NCBI GenBank assembly: GCA_028278125.1
Contig: JANQEY010000015.1
Location: 1-7,976, forward strand
Direction: 5' to 3'
Length of the DNA: 7,976 bases
DNA from: a bacterium
Lineage (GTDB): Bacteria > Electryoneota > Electryoneia > Electryoneales > Electryoneaceae
Positions 3 to 7,976 of this stretch are shown one piece after another (positions within the stretch are counted from its first letter, which is position 1; each line of letters begins with the position of its first letter). The translations under genes were made by a program, and so were the position numbers. The notes beneath the pieces were generated by a model, which saw only the letters and a program-made list of their open reading frames with translations, was not told where the DNA came from and ran no database searches.

Positions 3-3000
3 GTTCTCAATGATCAGACGGAAATGGCCACACACACCATGAGTGTAAGGGCCAGACCGGTTCACGGTTTGCCTAACTGTCTACCGTATTATGATGGAAG
101 TATTACTAACAATACGGTAGGACTAGGCGCAATGTATGATCCGGTGACAATAGATGACCCAGAAGGTTTTCCGGGAGAGTTTATGTGGGATATCACACCT
201 GATCTAAATGTTAGCCATGACGTGGGCGATGTCGGCCACGGTAACATAGTCGTACCCTATGGCCATACATTCGATCTAATTATCACGGGCCTTCAAGGAG
301 TTGAACACGACAGCAAAGACTGGACACCAGGGTACCCTACCATTCGAATAGTTGCCCCCGGTGGCGTGATTTTTTATGAGCAGAATCCAGAAGAACAGGA
401 AAACGAGGACGATGTCAAACTGCAACATACTATGAAGAATCCTGCAGATTCGACCGAATATTTCTATGACTTTAACTTTACCCCTGGCAGCGAACCTAAG
501 GTTCATCTATGGGTCCGCATCACTACAGATGTAAGCAATATCGCTACATCGGATGCCGCCAAAGTGGATGAATCCATAGAAATCCACTATCGTTACTGGG
601 AGGAAAAATGGTATTCAGGTGAGTTAAGCAAAAAGAGGCACGAACAACTCAATATTAATCTTAACTCCTATCGATTTTTCCGGAACCAAGTCAGTGGTAC
701 CTACGATGGTGTCAGCGGAGCAGATGTAGAACCTAAAGACGGTTATGGCGACTATATCGGTGTTGACGAAACCACGTATCTACGGGTCACCTATCCGGTA
801 GATAAATACCAAAATGTAATAAACAATTGTTTTCTTGCTAAGCCAACTCCTGGGGCGGAACAGGAGCCAGGATTTGATGCTGCTGATCCCTATGTTACAA
901 TTAAACTGGATTATCCGAATAACACCCAGGGTCGTGTGGAAGTGAAATATTTGAGCTTTGAACCTGGATATCAGCAAGTAGATTCGAACGACGACGGGGT
1001 TTTCGATGAGTTAATTGTGCCTGATGAAATACTTGATTATCTATCTAATAAAGAAAATACGTCAGGTACTCCCCTGCGTTGGTATGAATTGCAGGACGCC
1101 ACAAAGGAACAAGTTAATTGCGATGATTTCTTTATGCCCCTTCTCACCGATGATCCCGTTTCCGGCCCTGGCCCTGAGTCGGTTGCCGGTTATCTCAAAA
1201 TAACAGGTAAAGAAATAAGCAGTCGGTTTGACGATGTAACGATATCGGTTGACTTTCAAAACTATACTCACACCTTTAAATTTACCGTTGGCGATATCGT
1301 TTTGACACACAAAGGACAGACAGTCACCGAACCGGACAAGCCCCTGGTGGTTAGCGTCACCGAGGACGATGACCCTGATGGCGTCTTTCATGATACAGAG
1401 GGGAACGAAAAGGCCTACGATCCAGGAGACGAACTGGATACCTTTAAGCCTTTTGAACTTAGATTGCCGATGGTGAAACCGCGGAATGACGCGGCGGATA
1501 TTTGTTATTCGGCCGTTCGCTTCCAGTACCCTGAAAACGCACCGGATAATAGCGATGGCGGGCTTATCGTATGGGGTTTGTCTGGCGGGGAAGACCGGTC
1601 CAAAGAACGGAGCGACATTGATAACACCGGCTATATCCTTCACGAGGCAATGATGGGTCTTCCCCTCGAGGATCCAAGGCGGCGCGACATCATGGTCGAC
1701 GACAGGAGACTTTTTCTGGATTGGTTGGGTCTGGATGAATGGAGAGATGGGATGGAATATGAATCCACCCCAAGCAAGAGGGGGCCGAAACAGGAATTCT
1801 ATGTAGAAGGAATAAAACCGGGTGACTACAATGTCACCGTAGGGCTTGCACTTGTTTATGATCCTGTGGATATTTCTGTTAATATTAAAGGAAATCTTAG
1901 TGATTTTCCCGTCCCATTTCAAAACAGCTACGATTTTACCGACTCCGACATCATGAGGGTTATCGTCAAACCGGATCTGGACATCGATGTTGACGATGAT
2001 GGAACGATAGATCATTACGATGAGGAACATGAAGAAGAAAGCCCTAACGAAGAGGATTACCCAGGCTTGATATTATTTGTGAATGACGACGATTCGAATG
2101 GTGACAATGATGAAAATGATTCTCTTGATACTGAACCAGATGGCGATTTAGAAGACATGGTAGAACTGGTACTTAATCTTAATCCTTCAGGTTTTTCGGA
2201 AGGTTACTTCGAGTTAGCTATACGTGATGGTAGTAAGGGTAAGGTGCGCATTTTTGACTTCCCAAAATCGATTATAGGTCCTACAACCACTGAAAGTTCC
2301 GGTAAAGAAGTCACATCTTGTAAGCTTGAAGATGTACCCACAGAAAAGATTTCATTATACGCTGAGGGTGTAAAGCCCGGCAAGGTTACTATCGATCTGC
2401 ATTATAGAGATGATAAACATAACGTACTGGCTACGGATACGGTTGTGATTAGGGTCGATGGTGTTATGAAGGTAAAATTGGGTGAGGATTATAAAACTGA
2501 CATCCCAGATAGATGTGCTGGACAAGTTTATGTTCCTACATGTTATGGAGGTGACTTGACCATTGCTGGTGCCACGATTGAACTCTATTATCTTGATGGT
2601 AGTCGACTAAATTCTGAGCTCGCAATTTACCTCCGTGATGGAGATTTTCCACCGGAGTGCTTAATTAGCCAAGGAAATCCCTGTAGTTATACAGTGCCAG
2701 AAAACCAAGGCATGCATGGATGGTACTATATCCGTACGGAGAACGCTTGTACCTTGTCAGCTTCATTTACGCAGTCAAAAACCGTTGAAAAAGAACCATG
2801 GCATATCTCTTGGTACCCGTTTGCTGCCGACCAACCGTATCGCCATATGTACGAAATTGGTGGGGGCTTAGATGTCTATGATGCTTTATTCAATGCTTCA
2901 GCACCCAAAGCGTATGATGTTGAAAGGGGTGTTCTAATATTTGAAACAGGACACTACATTGCCCAGAGCACTGTAACAGAAAGCAATGCTGAGGTAACTT

Positions 3001-3701
3001 GGGGATATGGTGGTCTTGATTCAGATCCAGCTATCAATCCAGATGTTGATTATGATTGGCACCCTGAAGGAGGAGATGGGCTCATAAATCATACAGAAAA
3101 TGTAGGAACATGGGGGCATTGTGATAAGGCTTCAGCAGTAATTATCTTAGAAGATAAGCCTACAGTAGGTGGAGGTCTTAGTATTGAACAGAAGAATGAT
3201 CTCCTTGTTGCACTATATGACGGCAACGGGGGGATTCTCGTAGATAACGAGTGGCCTGATGTTTCTCCATATATCTGGCATAGCCAACTTGAAGAATTCA
3301 TGTTTAAGGATACGATACCAGGGAACAGTATCATAGAAGGTAAGATGTTTATGATTGATGTTGACCAATCTCCTAATGTTCAGAATCGTCCTGTTTACGG
3401 TATAGAGGAATGTGTGTATAAAGAAAATAATAACCATGAAAATCATAAGATAATGACTATTAGATGCAGGGTAAAAACTTGGACACTGACTAGTAAACAA
3501 GTAGTCACTTATGAATATATTGTTGTTTATGGAGACGATGGTAAAGCCATTGACCATCAATCCCAAGGGTGGATGCCCTTATCTGAAAAGCCAGATTCAC
3601 TTATACATCCCAAAAAAGTAACAGACCAGAATTTTAATTCTAGCTGGTGGCGAGGTCGATTAAACTATCATAATGTTCGTGCATTAATTAATGCTCAATA
3701 G
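3..3701 (+). CDS. Large acidic multidomain protein with C-terminal transglutaminase-like (GP42/Pep-13 type) domain, 5' partial
   Basis: The frame is open to the left edge. The first ATG (24) has no clear ribosome binding site or signal peptide, so the gene almost certainly starts upstream; residue numbers here count from that ATG (1,225 residues). Residues 1-590 are beta-rich, acidic and of unknown family, with an EF-loop-like DSNDDGVFDE at 320-329. A Y-V-E-G-I-K-P-G piece (593-600) recurs as Y-A-E-G-V-K-P-G (779-786). Between them lie a putative Ca2+ loop, DVDDDGTIDHYD (655-666), and an Asp/Asn-rich stretch (685-708). Five Cys fall within 831-909. Residues ~940-1215 resemble the transglutaminase elicitor family (candidate C1033, H1086, D1112 or D1114). 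This suggests a secreted protein able to crosslink or deamidate glutamine-containing targets, which is inferred. The downstream gene starts 49 bp after the stop. The 3' third is more AT-rich than the 5' part. The reading frame is certain; the full architecture and the substrate are not. Confidence 0.9.
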   Translation, partial: VLNDQTEMATHTMSVRARPVHGLPNCLPYYDGSITNNTVGLGAMYDPVTIDDPEGFPGEFMWDITPDLNVSHDVGDVGHGNIVVPYGHTFDLIITGLQGVEHDSKDWTPGYPTIRIVAPGGVIFYEQNPEEQENEDDVKLQHTMKNPADSTEYFYDFNFTPGSEPKVHLWVRITTDVSNIATSDAAKVDESIEIHYRYWEEKWYSGELSKKRHEQLNINLNSYRFFRNQVSGTYDGVSGADVEPKDGYGDYIGVDETTYLRVTYPVDKYQNVINNCFLAKPTPGAEQEPGFDAADPYVTIKLDYPNNTQGRVEVKYLSFEPGYQQVDSNDDGVFDELIVPDEILDYLSNKENTSGTPLRWYELQDATKEQVNCDDFFMPLLTDDPVSGPGPESVAGYLKITGKEISSRFDDVTISVDFQNYTHTFKFTVGDIVLTHKGQTVTEPDKPLVVSVTEDDDPDGVFHDTEGNEKAYDPGDELDTFKPFELRLPMVKPRNDAADICYSAVRFQYPENAPDNSDGGLIVWGLSGGEDRSKERSDIDNTGYILHEAMMGLPLEDPRRRDIMVDDRRLFLDWLGLDEWRDGMEYESTPSKRGPKQEFYVEGIKPGDYNVTVGLALVYDPVDISVNIKGNLSDFPVPFQNSYDFTDSDIMRVIVKPDLDIDVDDDGTIDHYDEEHEEESPNEEDYPGLILFVNDDDSNGDNDENDSLDTEPDGDLEDMVELVLNLNPSGFSEGYFELAIRDGSKGKVRIFDFPKSIIGPTTTESSGKEVTSCKLEDVPTEKISLYAEGVKPGKVTIDLHYRDDKHNVLATDTVVIRVDGVMKVKLGEDYKTDIPDRCAGQVYVPTCYGGDLTIAGATIELYYLDGSRLNSELAIYLRDGDFPPECLISQGNPCSYTVPENQGMHGWYYIRTENACTLSASFTQSKTVEKEPWHISWYPFAADQPYRHMYEIGGGLDVYDALFNASAPKAYDVERGVLIFETGHYIAQSTVTESNAEVTWGYGGLDSDPAINPDVDYDWHPEGGDGLINHTENVGTWGHCDKASAVIILEDKPTVGGGLSIEQKNDLLVALYDGNGGILVDNEWPDVSPYIWHSQLEEFMFKDTIPGNSIIEGKMFMIDVDQSPNVQNRPVYGIEECVYKENNNHENHKIMTIRCRVKTWTLTSKQVVTYEYIVVYGDDGKAIDHQSQGWMPLSEKPDSLIHPKKVTDQNFNSSWWRGRLNYHNVRALINAQ
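1977..2156 (+). other. Asp/Glu-rich putative calcium-binding segment
   Basis: This segment inside the large protein encodes LDIDVDDDGTIDHYD and then an acidic run (EEHEEESPNEED). After a short hydrophobic strand (GLILFVNDDD) comes a second Asp/Asn-rich run ending near LDTEPDGDLED. The first loop follows the spacing D1-D3-D5-G6-I8-D12 of EF-hand or dockerin-type calcium loops, with Asp rather than Glu at position 12. No flanking helices of a true EF-hand are obvious, so a rigid Ca2+-bound linker between beta domains is a better guess than a regulatory EF-hand. Similar VNDDD...GD runs are, from memory, common in planctomycete secreted proteins. Confidence 0.5.
2841..3698 (+). other. Transglutaminase elicitor-like (GP42/Pep-13 family) domain
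   Basis: This C-terminal part of the large protein (about residues 940-1225) was identified from motif order, not by alignment. In order: GGGLDVYDAL (946-955); a His in ETGHY (974-978); the nucleophile context GTWGHCDKAS with C1033; a following helix-like ILEDKP then LLVALYDG; SPYIWHSQ with H1086; FMIDVDQ with D1112 and D1114; VQNRPVYGIE at the Pep-13 position (1119-1128); YEYIVVYGDDGKAI; and a QGWMPLSEKPDSLIHP tail (W1183, HP 1195-1196). From memory, oomycete GP42 and its bacterial relatives share the GHC nucleophile, an FH-type His, a VWNQPV-like motif and a late W...HP element. The C-H-D order with gaps of 53 and 26-28 residues is compatible with a transglutaminase fold. Activity could be acyl transfer or deamidation, or it could be lost. 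Confidence 0.62.
3681..3694. repeat. Perfect 14-bp AT-rich palindrome at the end of the large gene
   Basis: GCATTAATTAATGC is identical to its reverse complement and lies in the last codons of the transglutaminase-like gene, seven bases before the end of its stop codon. No T-run follows closely, so it does not look like an intrinsic terminator. A perfect 14-mer palindrome is expected by chance about once in 16 kb of unbiased sequence, so it may have no function. Confidence 0.3.
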
Positions 3702-3738
3702 AATTAACATGCAATTTACGGGAATTCCAACAAATTTT

Positions 3739-3744
3739 AAGGAA
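3739..3744 (+). promoter_or_regulatory. Ribosome binding site deciding the start of the second gene
   Basis: AAGGAA lies six bases before the ATG at 3751. The earlier in-frame ATG at 3691 overlaps the previous stop codon, has no purine-rich Shine-Dalgarno sequence before it, and would put about 20 non-signal-like residues ahead of a good signal peptide. The site therefore favours 3751. Confidence 0.6.
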
Positions 3745-3750
3745 CCTCCT

Positions 3751-5457
3751 ATGAAAATTTTTTTAATCAGTGTAGCTGTTTTCGGTGTGATCGGCACAAA
3801 CACGGCAGTGATTGGGAGTATATCAGTTTCATCTGAGTTCTTGTCCACTGTGAGAGTAGGTGATTTTAGGGATATTTTAGTTACGGTCCCTAAACCAGGA
3901 TTTTTGGGAAGTACTCGGGAATTACCTCCTTGGTACAGAAAAGGTGTGCCCAAGCAAGCAGTAGATTTCGAAACGAAAACCGTTCGTATAACGGTTATAG
4001 AGATTGCGAATATCAACCGTGGGATTCGTATAATTATGGAATTAAGCAAAGTGGGCTCGAAAGCCCATGCAAACAAACAGCCTTCCCATGACAAGACTAA
4101 GCCTTTGTACTTTGCTTACCTTGATATAAGAAATAATAGTATGAGTATAGCAGGAGATGTGCGAATCAGAGCTAAACTACGTGATGGCACTGAGCCAAGT
4201 ATAGTAGGGATGACTCCTGCTTCCATATACAGGATGACGAGTTCAGGTATACCGTTTCCATTAATAGCCACCGTCCCACTATCGTGGTGTCAAAGCTCTA
4301 CTTTGCTAAAGGGTTCAATGTTTTCAAGCAAAAAGCAGCCTCTTTTTCATGAAGAACTCAACTCACTTTCAAAGGACAGGGACCAAAGCGTATTTAGAGT
4401 TAGTGTTCTTCAATCTTTAAAGGTTATATATAATGATAAAACAAAATCAGATACTCAAAAGGTGCCTGACAATTTAACCAGATCAGATGGGGATGGGTGG
4501 ACACCATTGGAGAGATCTCTAGCCTCAGATGCTGAATTAATTCGGTACCTATCATCTGACGGAAAGGAGCTAACCAAACACGTGTTAGAGGGGGCAGGTA
4601 GATATACTTTTCTCGCAGAGGAAATACAGACGTGGAAAAACGACCAAGATTGGCTTTGGTATTCCATGGAGCGTCGCGATCCGGACGGCAATCTAATGAT
4701 TCGATGTAAACAAATTGTCAATAAAAATCCTGATGAGCTAATAGAAATAGAAAGCAAATTACCGCTATCTGAAAATACCCAAAAAGAGATTGAAGTTCAA
4801 TCACGTGGTGCTACACACCAGCATGATTCATTTTATATAAATCCAATATCAGATCAGGGGATTGAGATATCTATAATAAACAGCAAGTCACCAGCGAAAA
4901 ACCGCAAGGGGGCATGGTTCATTAATTATCGTGGTACTGATAAGAGAGCAAATCGTGCGGTATCTGTGATAGGAGAGAAACAGACGGTTATCCTTCCTGG
5001 TACACATAAATTGGGTGGTGAAATCCTATTAAGGTACCTGTTGAAGAAAGGGAGTAGCTTGCCTTGGGCATACATTAGTGAAGTTGGTAAACAGCAAATT
5101 ACTTTCCCAGAAGACGCGGAGATCATCATCAGTCCAAATGATATAGTAGATGCAAACGTAGTATTCCGAGATAAAACACGTTTAGAAAAACCAGGCAAGC
5201 TTGGACTTTTTTATAAAAAAACATCTAATATACCACTGTTTAGCCTGAAAATAGACAAAATAAATGAAGCTAATACATCTAATTATTGTTTCTGCGTTGC
5301 CACGGGCGCATATCACGCTTGGCTTTTAAACGAGAAAGACGAAAAACATACTTATTTAGGTCAGGTCACCGTAACTAATGAGCCCAATAAGACATATACT
5401 TTACCAGTATCAGGGGTGGCACAGGAAGAAGTTAACTCCCAGGTCGGACCAGGTTAA
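3751..5457 (+). CDS. Secreted protein of unknown function, 568 aa
   Basis: I do not recognise this family. The start at 3751 is preferred over 3691 because AAGGAA precedes it at six bases and the protein then begins MKIFLISVAVFGVIGTNTAV, a Sec-type signal peptide with one Lys and a hydrophobic core. There is no lipobox Cys, so it is probably periplasmic or secreted. Residues ~30-175 alternate hydrophobic strands with polar turns; LYFAYLDIRNNSMSI recalls strands of Ig-like domains of the DUF4352 type, but the match is weak. The middle part (about 190-330) is charged and more helical, with WTPLERSLASDAELIRYL at 250-267, loosely like one ankyrin repeat. The last ~200 residues are beta-rich again (GAWFINYRGTDKR, then TVILPGTHKLGGEILLRYLL) and contain a CFC motif. 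No catalytic signature was seen. It lies 49 bp after the transglutaminase-like gene on the same strand, suggesting co-transcription and a possible partner or substrate role (inference). It is AT-rich relative to the third gene. Confidence 0.85.
   Translation: MKIFLISVAVFGVIGTNTAVIGSISVSSEFLSTVRVGDFRDILVTVPKPGFLGSTRELPPWYRKGVPKQAVDFETKTVRITVIEIANINRGIRIIMELSKVGSKAHANKQPSHDKTKPLYFAYLDIRNNSMSIAGDVRIRAKLRDGTEPSIVGMTPASIYRMTSSGIPFPLIATVPLSWCQSSTLLKGSMFSSKKQPLFHEELNSLSKDRDQSVFRVSVLQSLKVIYNDKTKSDTQKVPDNLTRSDGDGWTPLERSLASDAELIRYLSSDGKELTKHVLEGAGRYTFLAEEIQTWKNDQDWLWYSMERRDPDGNLMIRCKQIVNKNPDELIEIESKLPLSENTQKEIEVQSRGATHQHDSFYINPISDQGIEISIINSKSPAKNRKGAWFINYRGTDKRANRAVSVIGEKQTVILPGTHKLGGEILLRYLLKKGSSLPWAYISEVGKQQITFPEDAEIIISPNDIVDANVVFRDKTRLEKPGKLGLFYKKTSNIPLFSLKIDKINEANTSNYCFCVATGAYHAWLLNEKDEKHTYLGQVTVTNEPNKTYTLPVSGVAQEEVNSQVGPG
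4052..4067 (+). repeat. Perfect 6-bp stem with CGAA loop inside the second gene
   Basis: TGGGCT-CGAA-AGCCCA forms a perfect hairpin with a four-base loop, extendable by one G-T wobble, in the first fifth of the coding region. It is GC-rich in an otherwise AT-rich gene. No T-run follows, so it is not an intrinsic terminator. It may be a coding coincidence or may slow translation after the signal peptide. Confidence 0.3.
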
Positions 5458-5492
5458 ATAGCTCATTTGTTATTGAGTTGTGATATATGTTA

Positions 5493-5510
5493 CGCAGTTT
5501 TGTGCTTTTT
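5493..5510 (+). terminator. Weak terminator-like hairpin and T-run
   Basis: CGCA-gttt-TGTG can form a four-pair stem including one G-T wobble and is followed by C and five T residues, about 35 bases after the stop of the second gene. The stem is short for an intrinsic terminator. Its position between the unknown gene and a separately promoted gene is its main support. Confidence 0.22.
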
Positions 5511-5721
5511 AGGGGCTCCATTCAACCTTAAAATCGACTGTTTTAGAAGGTCAAACTACGAGCTTCGGGATTTATGTAAAAGCATATTTTATTCATATGA
5601 AACGTGAGTAAGAGGTGCCGCGGTATTTGAGTATGAATAGACCAACCTATTTGCCTGAAGCATTACTCTGGATATAGTGGGTGGGTTCACTTATACATGG
5701 GTACCTGTAGTTCATCTTAGG

Positions 5722-5750
5722 TTGATCTATCTCGAAGATTATAGTAAAAT
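5722..5750 (+). promoter_or_regulatory. Putative sigma-70-type promoter for the GLUG-repeat gene
   Basis: TTGATC (5722-5727, four of six matches to TTGACA) is separated by exactly 17 bases from TAAAAT (5745-5750, five of six matches to TATAAT). Transcription would begin near 5757, giving a leader of about 64 bases before the ATG at 5821. No extended -10 TG is present. The fit is good for an unaided reading, but AT-rich intergenic DNA yields such matches by chance. Confidence 0.45.
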
Positions 5751-5807
5751 CATCCCATAAGAGTATAAAACGTCCTAATAACAGAATAAGCGGTGTTTTG
5801 CCAAGTC

Positions 5808-5814
5808 GAGGGAG
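5808..5814 (+). promoter_or_regulatory. Ribosome binding site of the GLUG-repeat gene
   Basis: GAGGGAG ends six bases before the ATG at 5821. It is purine-rich with a GAGG core at a workable distance. Together with the in-frame stop at 5779 and the signal peptide starting at this ATG, it fixes the start. An alternative ATG four codons later (5833) is less well placed. Confidence 0.65.
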
Positions 5815-5820
5815 TGCCAC

Positions 5821-7976
5821 ATGCAATCTCGAATGTCTGCTGTTGCGTTGATTGTTTTCAGCCTTGTCGCGATCCTTTTACCTCACAATCGATGCCTCGG
5901 AGCCTATTCCGGTGGGGCAGGTACGGCTGAGGATCCCTATCAGCTTGCCACGGCCCAGGATCTGATTGATTTGGGAGATGAGCCTAACGATTACGACCTG
6001 CACTTTATCCTGACTGCTGATATCGATCTGTCTACTTACCGTTTCGACCGGGCCATTATTGCACCCCATCTATCCAAAGGGAAGGATGATTTGGTTTTTT
6101 TGGGTAATGTCTTCAATGGATTTCTGGATGGCGACGGCTACACGATTCGCGGTTTGGCCATTGAGGGAAATGACTTTATTGGTTTGATCGGTAAGATAGG
6201 AGCAAAGGGCAATGTCAGCCGTCTAAAACTCGATGATGCCAAAGTACAAGCGCTTCATGCGGAAGGACTCGACCCCCTTTATCCTAAAGGAATCGAGACA
6301 GATAAAAAGCGAGTTGAGGAGGAAATGTCATCCACGAAAGGTCGTGGTGGACCGAATTATGGGAATTATGTAGGTTCATTGGCTGGGGAAAGCGAAGGCA
6401 AGATTACGAATTGTCATGTTATGGCCACGGTAGTGGGAAATATCTATACCGGTGGTCTGGTGGGGTTAAGCTACGGTGCCATAAGCGACTGTCGGGTAGG
6501 GGGAGAGGTACAGGGGTATTTTTACTGTGGCGGCCTAACGGGAAAAAGTTATGGCAGTATAACGCGATGCGTAAGCAGTGCCAAAGTTCATGGCGGCGGG
6601 TTCATTGGGGGTGTGGTTGGTAAGACCGAGAGCGATATTCACTATTGTGAAAGCATGGGTGAAATTAACGGAGTAGAAACAACCGGCGGTCTGGCTGGAT
6701 CAATCTCCAAGACGGGCCAAGTGGACTACAGTTCCAGTACCGGTGTAGTAAGCGGTTGGACAGTCACCGGTGGTTTGGTAGGAGCTAATGCCGGCCATAT
6801 GCACCGATGTTGGAGTCGCAGTACAGTTCTATTAGAGGGTCACCTGTCGGCTTGGTTGCCATTGGCCGGTGGCTTGACTGGCCAGAATAGCGGTAAAATA
6901 GCCGAATGCTTCTATAGGGGTGATGTAACCGGCGATGAATACGTCGGCGGCCTGTGTGGTTCGAATTATGGTGACATCGTCGGCTGTTATAGCGATGGTT
7001 CTACAAAAGGTCAAATATATACCGGTGGTTTAGTGGGACATAACAACGGTGTAATAACGAGCTGCTATAGTTATAGTTTTGTTTCAGGTATACATTCTAG
7101 TGGTGGTCTTGTGGGTGCTAATTTCGACCTTATCAAGTACTGTTATAGTGTAGGATCGATCAGCGGTGATACCTTTACGGGGGGCTTCATTGGAAGTAAC
7201 GGCGGCCGTATTAACGGTGGATTCTGGGATATGGAAAGCTCGGGGATACACCACAGCAGTGGCGGTGCGGGTCTGAGCCGCGCCGAGAGTATGGATGCCC
7301 AGTGGCTGGGACTGCAGGGATTCCATCGGGATCCCAACTGGGTCTTGGATCCCGGGCAGGACTACCCGCGTCTGGCCTGGGAGGAGACACCAGGGCAGGC
7401 CGTTCCCGTTCCGACCATGGACTGGCTGGACGGCCAGGGGACATATGAAGATCCCTATCAGCTAGCCAGCGCCGGCCAACTCTACCGGATCAGTAAATCC
7501 AGTTCCCTGTGGGAAACAAGGTACTATGCTTTGACTGCGGACATCGATCTTACAGGATACACCTGGACGCAGGCGATTTTTCCGAGGTATTTCACCATCT
7601 TTCGCGGTAATAACCACGTCATTTCCAATGTTACCATGCGTGGCGCCGATTACCTGGGTTTGTTTGGTCATACCGGCGAGGAAACAACCATCTTGAATTT
7701 ACGCTTGGAAAATGTGGACTTTGAAGGATCGGGTAGCCATGCCGGTGCGATCGTAGGGGTGAACCGCGGTCAAATTCTGTATTCATCCAGTTCGGGCCGA
7801 GTGACAGGAAATAAATATGTTGGGGGCTTGGTTGGGAGCAATAAGGGCTACCTGGCAGCTTGCTTCAGTGCGGGTGAAGTACATGGTAGCAGTATTGTTG
7901 GCGGTCTGGCCGGAGAGGGGCGGACTATCCACAACTGCTATAGTATCAGTGCGGTCTACGGTCGTCTCACGACTGG
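5821..7976 (+). CDS. GLUG-repeat secreted or surface protein, 3' partial
   Basis: An uninterrupted frame of 718 codons runs off the right edge. Residues 1-28 form a Sec signal peptide (short Arg-containing start, core ALIVFSLVAILL, likely cleavage after LGA). Mature module 1 begins YSGGAGTAEDPYQLATAQDL (29-48), followed by FILTADIDLS and FNGFLDGDGYTIRGLAIEG. After a charged insert (about 146-181) come eleven GLUG motif repeats (about 183-467), then a cap with FWDMESSG (468-475) and DYPRLAWE (514-521). Module 2 opens at about 536 with the same header (GTYEDPYQLASAGQ, LTADIDL) and has three or more repeats before the window ends. The GLUG motif is a known Pfam family in secreted and surface proteins; the fold is probably a beta-helix or solenoid. 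Likely roles are adhesion, cell-surface structure or glycan binding, which is inference. The gene has its own promoter-like sequence and higher GC than the preceding gene. Confidence 0.92.
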   Translation, partial: MQSRMSAVALIVFSLVAILLPHNRCLGAYSGGAGTAEDPYQLATAQDLIDLGDEPNDYDLHFILTADIDLSTYRFDRAIIAPHLSKGKDDLVFLGNVFNGFLDGDGYTIRGLAIEGNDFIGLIGKIGAKGNVSRLKLDDAKVQALHAEGLDPLYPKGIETDKKRVEEEMSSTKGRGGPNYGNYVGSLAGESEGKITNCHVMATVVGNIYTGGLVGLSYGAISDCRVGGEVQGYFYCGGLTGKSYGSITRCVSSAKVHGGGFIGGVVGKTESDIHYCESMGEINGVETTGGLAGSISKTGQVDYSSSTGVVSGWTVTGGLVGANAGHMHRCWSRSTVLLEGHLSAWLPLAGGLTGQNSGKIAECFYRGDVTGDEYVGGLCGSNYGDIVGCYSDGSTKGQIYTGGLVGHNNGVITSCYSYSFVSGIHSSGGLVGANFDLIKYCYSVGSISGDTFTGGFIGSNGGRINGGFWDMESSGIHHSSGGAGLSRAESMDAQWLGLQGFHRDPNWVLDPGQDYPRLAWEETPGQAVPVPTMDWLDGQGTYEDPYQLASAGQLYRISKSSSLWETRYYALTADIDLTGYTWTQAIFPRYFTIFRGNNHVISNVTMRGADYLGLFGHTGEETTILNLRLENVDFEGSGSHAGAIVGVNRGQILYSSSSGRVTGNKYVGGLVGSNKGYLAACFSAGEVHGSSIVGGLAGEGRTIHNCYSISAVYGRLTT
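5905..6030 (+). repeat. GLUG module header, copy A
   Basis: Encodes the YSGGAGTAEDPYQLA...LTADIDL header that opens the first module (residues 29-70). It is matched by a second header at 7426-7551. At DNA level the two share GATCCCTATCAGCT exactly in the EDPYQLA codons (GAT at 5932 and 7450), while neighbouring codons differ synonymously. The offset between copies is 1,518 bp, or 506 residues, the length of one module. Confidence 0.75.
6367..7221 (+). repeat. GLUG repeat array A, eleven units of ~26 residues
   Basis: Repeat units start at residues 183, 209, 235, 261, 287, 315, 348, 374, 400, 426 and 452. All spacings are 26 residues (78 bp) except 28 after unit five and 33 after unit six. 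The shared pattern is YTGGLVGxNxGxIxxCYSxGxVxG. A Cys is kept at the same place in units 1-4 and 6-10, is missing in unit 5 (Ser-rich) and is absent in unit 11, which merges into the FWD cap. Codons for the shared TGGLVG differ widely between units, so the array is old and under protein-level selection, not a recent slippage product. Confidence 0.85.
7426..7551 (+). repeat. GLUG module header, copy B
   Basis: Encodes LDGQGTYEDPYQLASAGQ and, further on, YALTADIDL, matching the first header in order and spacing. It follows the cap of module 1 after a short Pro-rich linker (TPGQAVPVPTMDW). It marks the start of a second module that leaves the window. Confidence 0.75.
7738..7976 (+). repeat. GLUG repeat array B, at least three units, cut by window edge
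   Basis: Units start at residues 640, 666 and 692, again exactly 26 residues apart, with YVGGLVGSNKGYLAACFSAG as the best-preserved copy. Unit one has Ser in place of the usual Cys, as unit five of array A does. The charged insert of module 1 between the header region and the first unit is missing here. Confidence 0.8.

What the first reader, a model, noticed from the sequence alone, without database searches (positions are those of the whole stretch)
2841..3698. Phytophthora-elicitor-type transglutaminase domain at the end of a giant bacterial protein
Residues ~940-1225 show an ordered set of motifs recalled from the GP42/Pep-13 transglutaminase family: GHC nucleophile (C1033), a YIWH His (H1086), MIDVDQ Asp, an N-x-P-V-x-G segment and a late W...HP element. 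The family is best known from oomycetes, where it triggers plant immunity, with scattered bacterial relatives. Here it is the C-terminal domain of a very long acidic, putatively Ca2+-binding protein in a planctomycete-like genome. That architecture could be an undescribed secreted protein-crosslinking or deamidating factor. Motifs are seen in the sequence; the family link is by recollection; the function is inference.
Basis: partly seen in the sequence, partly recalled or inferred. Interest (0 to 1): 0.8.

Follow-up and report, generated by a model that had tools for sequence, protein, structure and literature searches.

The report
Secreted bacterial GP42-type transglutaminase with partner gene
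The end of a very long bacterial protein is a distant relative of the Phytophthora enzyme that alarms plants, and it is encoded next to a gene for a probably exported partner protein, like the swappable business end of a bacterial effector system.

Summary

Two details are new. GP42's reported Cys-His dyad is absent: His precedes the Cys in 17 of 17 sequences and follows it in 1 of 17. The acidic segment is a PAD_M-like domain (PF08527, 25.6 bits), a Ca2+-binding domain in PAD enzymes (recalled).

The context suggests a modular effector. ORF2, just downstream, has a homologue behind the transglutaminase of a Kiritimatiellae MAG (E 1e-9). A relative, P0003, shares its N-terminal region with eight proteins that lack a detected GP42-type domain. 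Another genome carries a duplicated transglutaminase-tail/partner pair.

I propose an exported, swappable C-terminal crosslinking or deamidating enzyme with a cognate extracytoplasmic partner. Family and fold are well supported. Activity, target and the partner's role are inferred.

The parts
3..3701 (+). ORF1, 1232 aa, open at the window's left edge; long acidic protein with a C-terminal GP42-type transglutaminase. No start or signal peptide is visible because it runs off the window; the complete relative in L011 (1223 aa) begins with a signal-like sequence (judged by eye).
1977..2372 (+). PAD_M-like domain (PF08527), the aspartate-rich segment; binds Ca2+ in PAD enzymes (recalled), so Ca2+ binding here is inferred
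   Evidence: PF08527 25.6 bits, cut-off 24.8, when 1800-2450 is scanned alone; 35% identity over 170 aa, E 7e-22, to the same segment of the G294 relative
2460..2783 (+). N-terminal beta-domain of the conserved module (VYVPT-x-x-GG-L ... GWYYI)
   Evidence: shared with relatives; confident strands in the model
2751..3698 (+). GP42/PF16683-type transglutaminase domain (papain-like fold)
3117..3122 (+). His-Cys: predicted nucleophile Cys (ORF residue 1040) with invariant His one before it
   Evidence: 17 of 17 sequences; Cys lies at the start of a helix in the model
3279..3281 (+). His of the WH motif (reader H1086); aligns with a His of GP42
   Evidence: 15 of 17; alignments
3357..3359 (+). Asp of MIDV (reader D1112); aligns with an Asp of GP42
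   Evidence: Asp in 15 of 17, Asn in 2
3384..3395 (+). N-x-P-V segment, equivalent of the GP42 stretch VWNQPV
   Evidence: Asn in 16 of 17
3751..5457 (+). ORF2, putative exported partner protein (568 aa from the ATG at 3751, which follows a Shine-Dalgarno-like AAGGAA; the frame itself opens at 3691 and overlaps ORF1)
   Evidence: homologous to the ORF behind the transglutaminase in L001/L009, E 1e-9

Best explanation
ORF1 is an exported, modular, Ca2+-regulated protein whose C-terminus is a divergent GP42-type (PF16683-like) transglutaminase with a papain-like fold. The Cys attacks a glutamine side chain of a target protein outside the cytoplasm and either crosslinks it to an amine or deamidates it. 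ORF2 encodes a cognate exported partner that most likely protects the producer by inhibiting or sequestering the enzyme, as periplasmic immunity proteins do. The pair is one member of a polymorphic effector family of bacteria around the Kiritimatiellae (Verrucomicrobiota, recalled taxonomy), in which shared N-terminal export and Ig-like modules carry different C-terminal enzymes. Shown: family, fold, conserved Cys/His/Asp/Asn, PAD_M-like domain, the conserved ORF1-ORF2-type pair in two lineages, and different C-termini on a shared N-terminal region in relatives. Inferred: export of ORF1 (its start is outside the window), Ca2+ regulation, enzymatic activity, target, and the role of ORF2.
Against: The window alone passes no family cut-off for the transglutaminase. 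ORF2's homology to the partners in L010 and L011 is unproven: hhalign E 0.13 for A8 vs the L010 pair, 0.0036 for A8 vs L011 and 0.015 for the L010 pair vs L011, and the A9 profile does not rank the other partners first. The A8 profile found no second genome among 387, only the sequence it was built from, so the ORF2 family is seen twice only. No delivery gene (secretion apparatus, VgrG, CdiB) was recognised among the window's three ORFs by the scans made (ORF3 was not scanned with PHROGs). Catalytic geometry was not measured, and the TM-scores to GP42 are modest (0.42/0.52). ORF2 (568 aa) is large for an immunity protein. The shared-N-terminus evidence comes from P0003, not from the window's own N-terminus.
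Confidence: 0.45

Rival explanations
1. A self-directed secreted transglutaminase that builds or hardens the producer's own surface layer or extracellular matrix. ORF2 is its substrate or a secreted activator.
For: GP42 itself is described as a cell-wall-associated, Ca2+-dependent transglutaminase (PMC9879208, passages). ORF2 has a hydrophobic, signal-like N-terminus and is large. One protein with the P0003-type N-terminal region carries an animal-type transglutaminase, and three other C-termini look transglutaminase-like by eye only.
Against: Different C-termini on a common N-terminal region, a duplicated tail/partner cassette and an RHS protein next door fit effectors better than a housekeeping matrix enzyme. 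The family is rare: 6 of 387 genomes matched A4, three of them in the transglutaminase module.
Confidence: 0.25
2. An effector aimed at eukaryotes (protists, algae) or other hosts, with ORF2 as a separate secreted factor rather than an immunity protein.
For: The family's best-known members are in oomycetes and marine Vibrio (PMC4915311, passages). Giant secreted proteins suit host contact (inference).
Against: No host-delivery gene was recognised. The partner slot is filled in all four loci seen, which suits self-protection.
Confidence: 0.15
3. A catalytically dead or protease-like papain-fold domain used for binding or for self-cleavage.
Against: Cys and preceding His are kept in 17 of 17, WH-His in 15, Asp in 15 and Asn in 16 of 17 divergent sequences, which is not expected of a dead site. 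GP42 is far the best structural match.
Confidence: 0.12

Closest known systems
GP42 transglutaminase of Phytophthora sojae (PDB 3tw5; PF16683 TGase_elicitor)
   Same: Fold and near full-length profile match; W-x-G-x-C stretch, a downstream His and Asp, and the VWN-x-P stretch align.
   Different: His lies before, not after, the Cys (GP42's CH motif from PMC10318531). Here the domain follows an extra beta-domain, a PAD_M-like domain and more than 600 further residues, and it is paired with ORF2.
Polymorphic toxin systems (PMC3482391)
   Same: In relatives: a shared N-terminal region with different C-terminal domains, a small gene directly downstream, a duplicated tail/partner cassette, RHS proteins nearby.
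   Different: Toxicity and immunity are untested; the partner has an export-like N-terminus. The part of the paper held here (300,000 of 357,715 characters) has no occurrence of 'elicitor' or 'Phytophthora', and the passages seen describe other transglutaminase domains (AvrPphE-type Tox-TGase and inactive ones).
PAD_M, middle domain of peptidylarginine deiminases (PF08527)
   Same: The acidic segment passes the Pfam cut-off.
   Different: No deiminase domain was found after it; a transglutaminase follows.

Membership tests
PF16683 / GP42 transglutaminases | Score over the Pfam gathering cut-off | tested here: not met
   Window: no match. Of 16 relatives scanned, P0004, P0006 and P0012 pass; L010 scores 19.9 bits, under the cut-off of 25; 12 have no match. 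Hence it is filed as a divergent relative, not as a cut-off member.
PF16683 / GP42 transglutaminases | Homology along the GP42 chain | tested here: met
   Profile A5 vs 3tw5: E 4.8e-13, residues 33-360; A3: E 1e-7. The window alone and the two-member profile found nothing; P0013 alone reached only E 0.23.
PF16683 / GP42 transglutaminases | GP42 fold | tested here: met
PF16683 / GP42 transglutaminases | Cys followed by His (the CH motif reported for GP42) | tested here: not met
   Residue after Cys is Asp in the window and His in 1 of 17; residue before Cys is His in 17 of 17.
PF16683 / GP42 transglutaminases | Transglutaminase activity, Ca2+ dependence | not testable with these tools
   Needs an assay.
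Polymorphic toxin systems | Conserved N-terminus with swapped C-terminal domains | tested here: inconclusive
   Seen for the relative P0003. The window's own N-terminal 794 residues matched 3 of 387 genomes, all over the PAD_M-like module, with different continuations.
Polymorphic toxin systems | Cognate immunity gene downstream | tested here: inconclusive
   A same-strand ORF follows in 4 of 4 transglutaminase loci; homology is shown for 2 of them only; function unknown.
PAD_M (PF08527) | Score over the gathering cut-off | tested here: met
   25.6 bits vs 24.8 when the segment 1800-2450 is scanned alone; not reported when all of ORF1 is scanned.

The most novel reading that the evidence does not exclude
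GP42-type transglutaminases are C-terminal warheads of an undescribed polymorphic effector-partner system in Kiritimatiellae-like bacteria. They use a His-Cys rather than the Cys-His active site of GP42, and the oomycete elicitor enzyme derives from this bacterial conflict repertoire, with exported partner proteins acting as the first known inhibitors of the family.
Probability: 0.3. Interest if true: 0.8.

Novelty: new variant of a known kind. Interest (0 to 1): 0.56.

Why it matters
A 2016 review says that GP42 homologues are found only in oomycetes and some marine Vibrio (PMC4915311, passages). Relatives in a Kiritimatiellae and an Armatimonadota MAG widen that range, although the protein database already tags three of the relatives with PF16683. 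The fixed His before the Cys makes a testable claim about how this odd papain-fold enzyme works. If ORF2-type partners inhibit the enzyme, they would be natural inhibitors of an enzyme family known mainly from plant pathogens.

Tried and rejected
Direct scans of ORF1 with Pfam and NCBIfam, and of its C-terminus with PDB sequences, found nothing for the transglutaminase. The search with full ORF1, region 900-1232, found nothing. The search with the C-terminus alone gave one relative; only the profile of two opened the family (7991 best candidates scored, not all). Scans of viral contigs, phages and plasmids found no relative. PF16683 itself rang in 0 of 387 genomes and in no control, so that answer says nothing about absence. 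Order-level searches added no new genome. PAD_M rang in 1 of 8 chosen genomes, G294. A single-sequence AlphaFold2 model was useless (pLDDT 33). BFVD gave no match under 1e-3. PADLOC found nothing in the window's three ORFs; PHROGs found nothing in ORF1 and ORF2.

I first took all downstream ORFs of the P0003-type proteins as partners. That was wrong for L030, whose downstream ORF has Transglut_C domains and so is probably part of the same enzyme; L031 has none. So 6 of 8 have a partner-like ORF. A crude hydrophobicity score marks 10 of 12 listed downstream ORFs (that list still includes L030's) as signal-like, against 25 of 66 other ORFs. It is a rough measure, not a signal-peptide predictor, and the other ORFs include spurious ones.

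I considered that ORF2, the L010 partners and the L011 partner are one family. The A8 profile ranks the L010 and L011 partners first and second among the non-members of a 98-ORF set, and the L011 partner picks those of L009 and L010, but at E 0.016 to 1.6, and the A9 profile does not agree; it stays a suggestion. In L001 the transglutaminase directly follows prophage-like genes (tape measure) and lacks most of the N-terminal beta-domain in frame; this may be a cassette insertion, a tail-linked effector or a MAG assembly artefact.

Literature: Reiss et al. 2011 on GP42 was not held; only passages of PMC10318531, PMC9879208, PMC4915311 and PMC3482391 were seen, and other papers as listings with the start of the abstract. 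Searches for PF16683, TGase_elicitor, polymorphic toxin + transglutaminase + immunity protein, and interbacterial + transglutaminase + effector + immunity protein listed no title or abstract start that describes this; only this open-licence library was searched and those papers were not read, apart from the passages named.

Full report
Observation. ORF1 runs on the + strand from the window's left edge to 3701.

Family. Direct searches of the window's protein with Pfam, NCBIfam and PDB sequences fail for this domain. A search with the 316-residue C-terminus against 5.8 billion proteins gave one relative, P0001 (35% identity over 99% of the query). The profile of the two gave 11 more relatives (two of them covering only 76-77% of the query) and one distant one, P0013 (E 6.7e-3). 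Own Pfam scans put P0004 (32 bits), P0006 (26 bits) and P0012 (27.3 bits) over the PF16683 cut-off of 25; L010 scores 19.9, and the 12 other relatives scanned show nothing. A profile of seven diverse members matches GP42, 3tw5, at E 4.8e-13 over residues 33-360; the next PDB sequence is at 0.36.

Active site. In the HMMER alignments GP42 reads TWFGISHAW where this family reads W-x-G-H-C. I take the Ser to be the replaced catalytic Cys of the crystallised protein; that is inference and recall. PMC10318531 (passages) says that GP42 lacks the canonical His and has it right after the Cys. Here the residue after the Cys varies (D, G, W, H, V, T, L), while His before the Cys is fixed in 17 of 17. 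The WH His (15 of 17) and the Asp (15 of 17; Asn in two) align with a His and an Asp of GP42. Distances could not be measured.

Architecture. The conserved module begins near window 2460 with a beta-domain shared by the relatives. Before it lies a PAD_M-like domain (25.6 bits, cut-off 24.8, when the segment is scanned alone; the G294 relative scores 30.5 bits and matches the window at E 7e-22). The rest of ORF1 matched no Pfam family. The G294 relative is complete: 1223 aa with a signal-like start (by eye), the PAD_M domain and the transglutaminase.

Partner gene. ORF2 starts most likely at 3751, behind a Shine-Dalgarno-like stretch, with a hydrophobic N-terminus. A homologue sits in the same place behind the transglutaminase of a Kiritimatiellae MAG (two segments, E 1e-9 each in a two-sequence comparison). 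The pair profile A8 found no further genome among 387 of that phylum; its one match is the sequence it was built from. L010 and L011 also have same-strand ORFs 18 and 13 bases behind the transglutaminase; one of L010's two copies scores just under the crude signal threshold (1.81 vs 2.0). Their homology to ORF2 is suggestive but unproven. In G210 an 81-aa frame matching the transglutaminase tail (E 1.8e-5) lies between the first partner and its 55%-identical second copy. Such duplicated tail/partner cassettes are typical of polymorphic toxin loci (established knowledge, recalled).

Different C-termini. The first 231 residues of the transglutaminase relative P0003 match a region in eight proteins in four genomes, upstream of their C-terminal parts: G369 (four), G289 (two), G166 and G210 (one each; the last weak, 35%, E 4e-4). 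None of the eight has a Pfam match for a GP42-type domain. One carries Transglut_N and Transglut_core, with Transglut_C in the next ORF. Others look caspase-like or transglutaminase-like by eye only and are not confirmed by Pfam, so a distant GP42-like domain in some of them is not excluded. Six of the eight are followed on the same strand by an ORF of 161-301 aa. The window's own N-terminal 794 residues matched 3 of 387 genomes, all over the PAD_M-like module; in G207 that module is followed by a weak alpha/beta-hydrolase match under the Pfam cut-off (24.3 bits vs 26.3), and in G168 the frame ends soon after it.

Conclusion. Family and fold are firm. Export is likely from the complete relatives. 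That the enzyme is active, and that ORF2 guards the producer, is my preferred reading but inferred. A self-directed matrix enzyme is the main rival.

Noticed in passing
L030 (G289:C227), ORFs 1901-3772 and 792-1904, - strand: An animal-type transglutaminase in a bacterial genome, split over two overlapping ORFs: Transglut_N plus Transglut_core and Transglut_C, behind a region shared with P0003.
   Followed up: partly
L013 3561-6179 and L031 2755-4584: C-termini with caspase-like (SHG...SICYS) and transglutaminase-like (NCYDQ...NHAF...YDAC) motifs, seen by eye; no Pfam match.
   Followed up: partly
L001 550-7909: Prophage-like genes directly upstream of the transglutaminase: tape measure (phrog_5062, 5.1e-10) and an ORF with a sub-cut-off PBECR3 match.
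   Followed up: partly
L012 4615-5685, L013 1432-2538, L015 8319-9782, L029 1-897: A recurring further gene downstream of the P0003-type proteins (79% identity between L012 and L013 copies, 33-42% to L015; L029 copy by eye only), without a known name.
   Followed up: no
window 5821-7976: ORF3, a protein with a hydrophobic N-terminus (by eye) and GLUG motifs (PF07581, 9.7e-21), 363 bases behind ORF2; GC of 5458-7976 is 0.49 against 0.40 in ORF2.
   Followed up: no
window 2934-3110: A poorly predicted stretch just before the Cys (model residues 184-242, pLDDT under 50) that varies in length between relatives and is nearly absent in L010.
   Followed up: no
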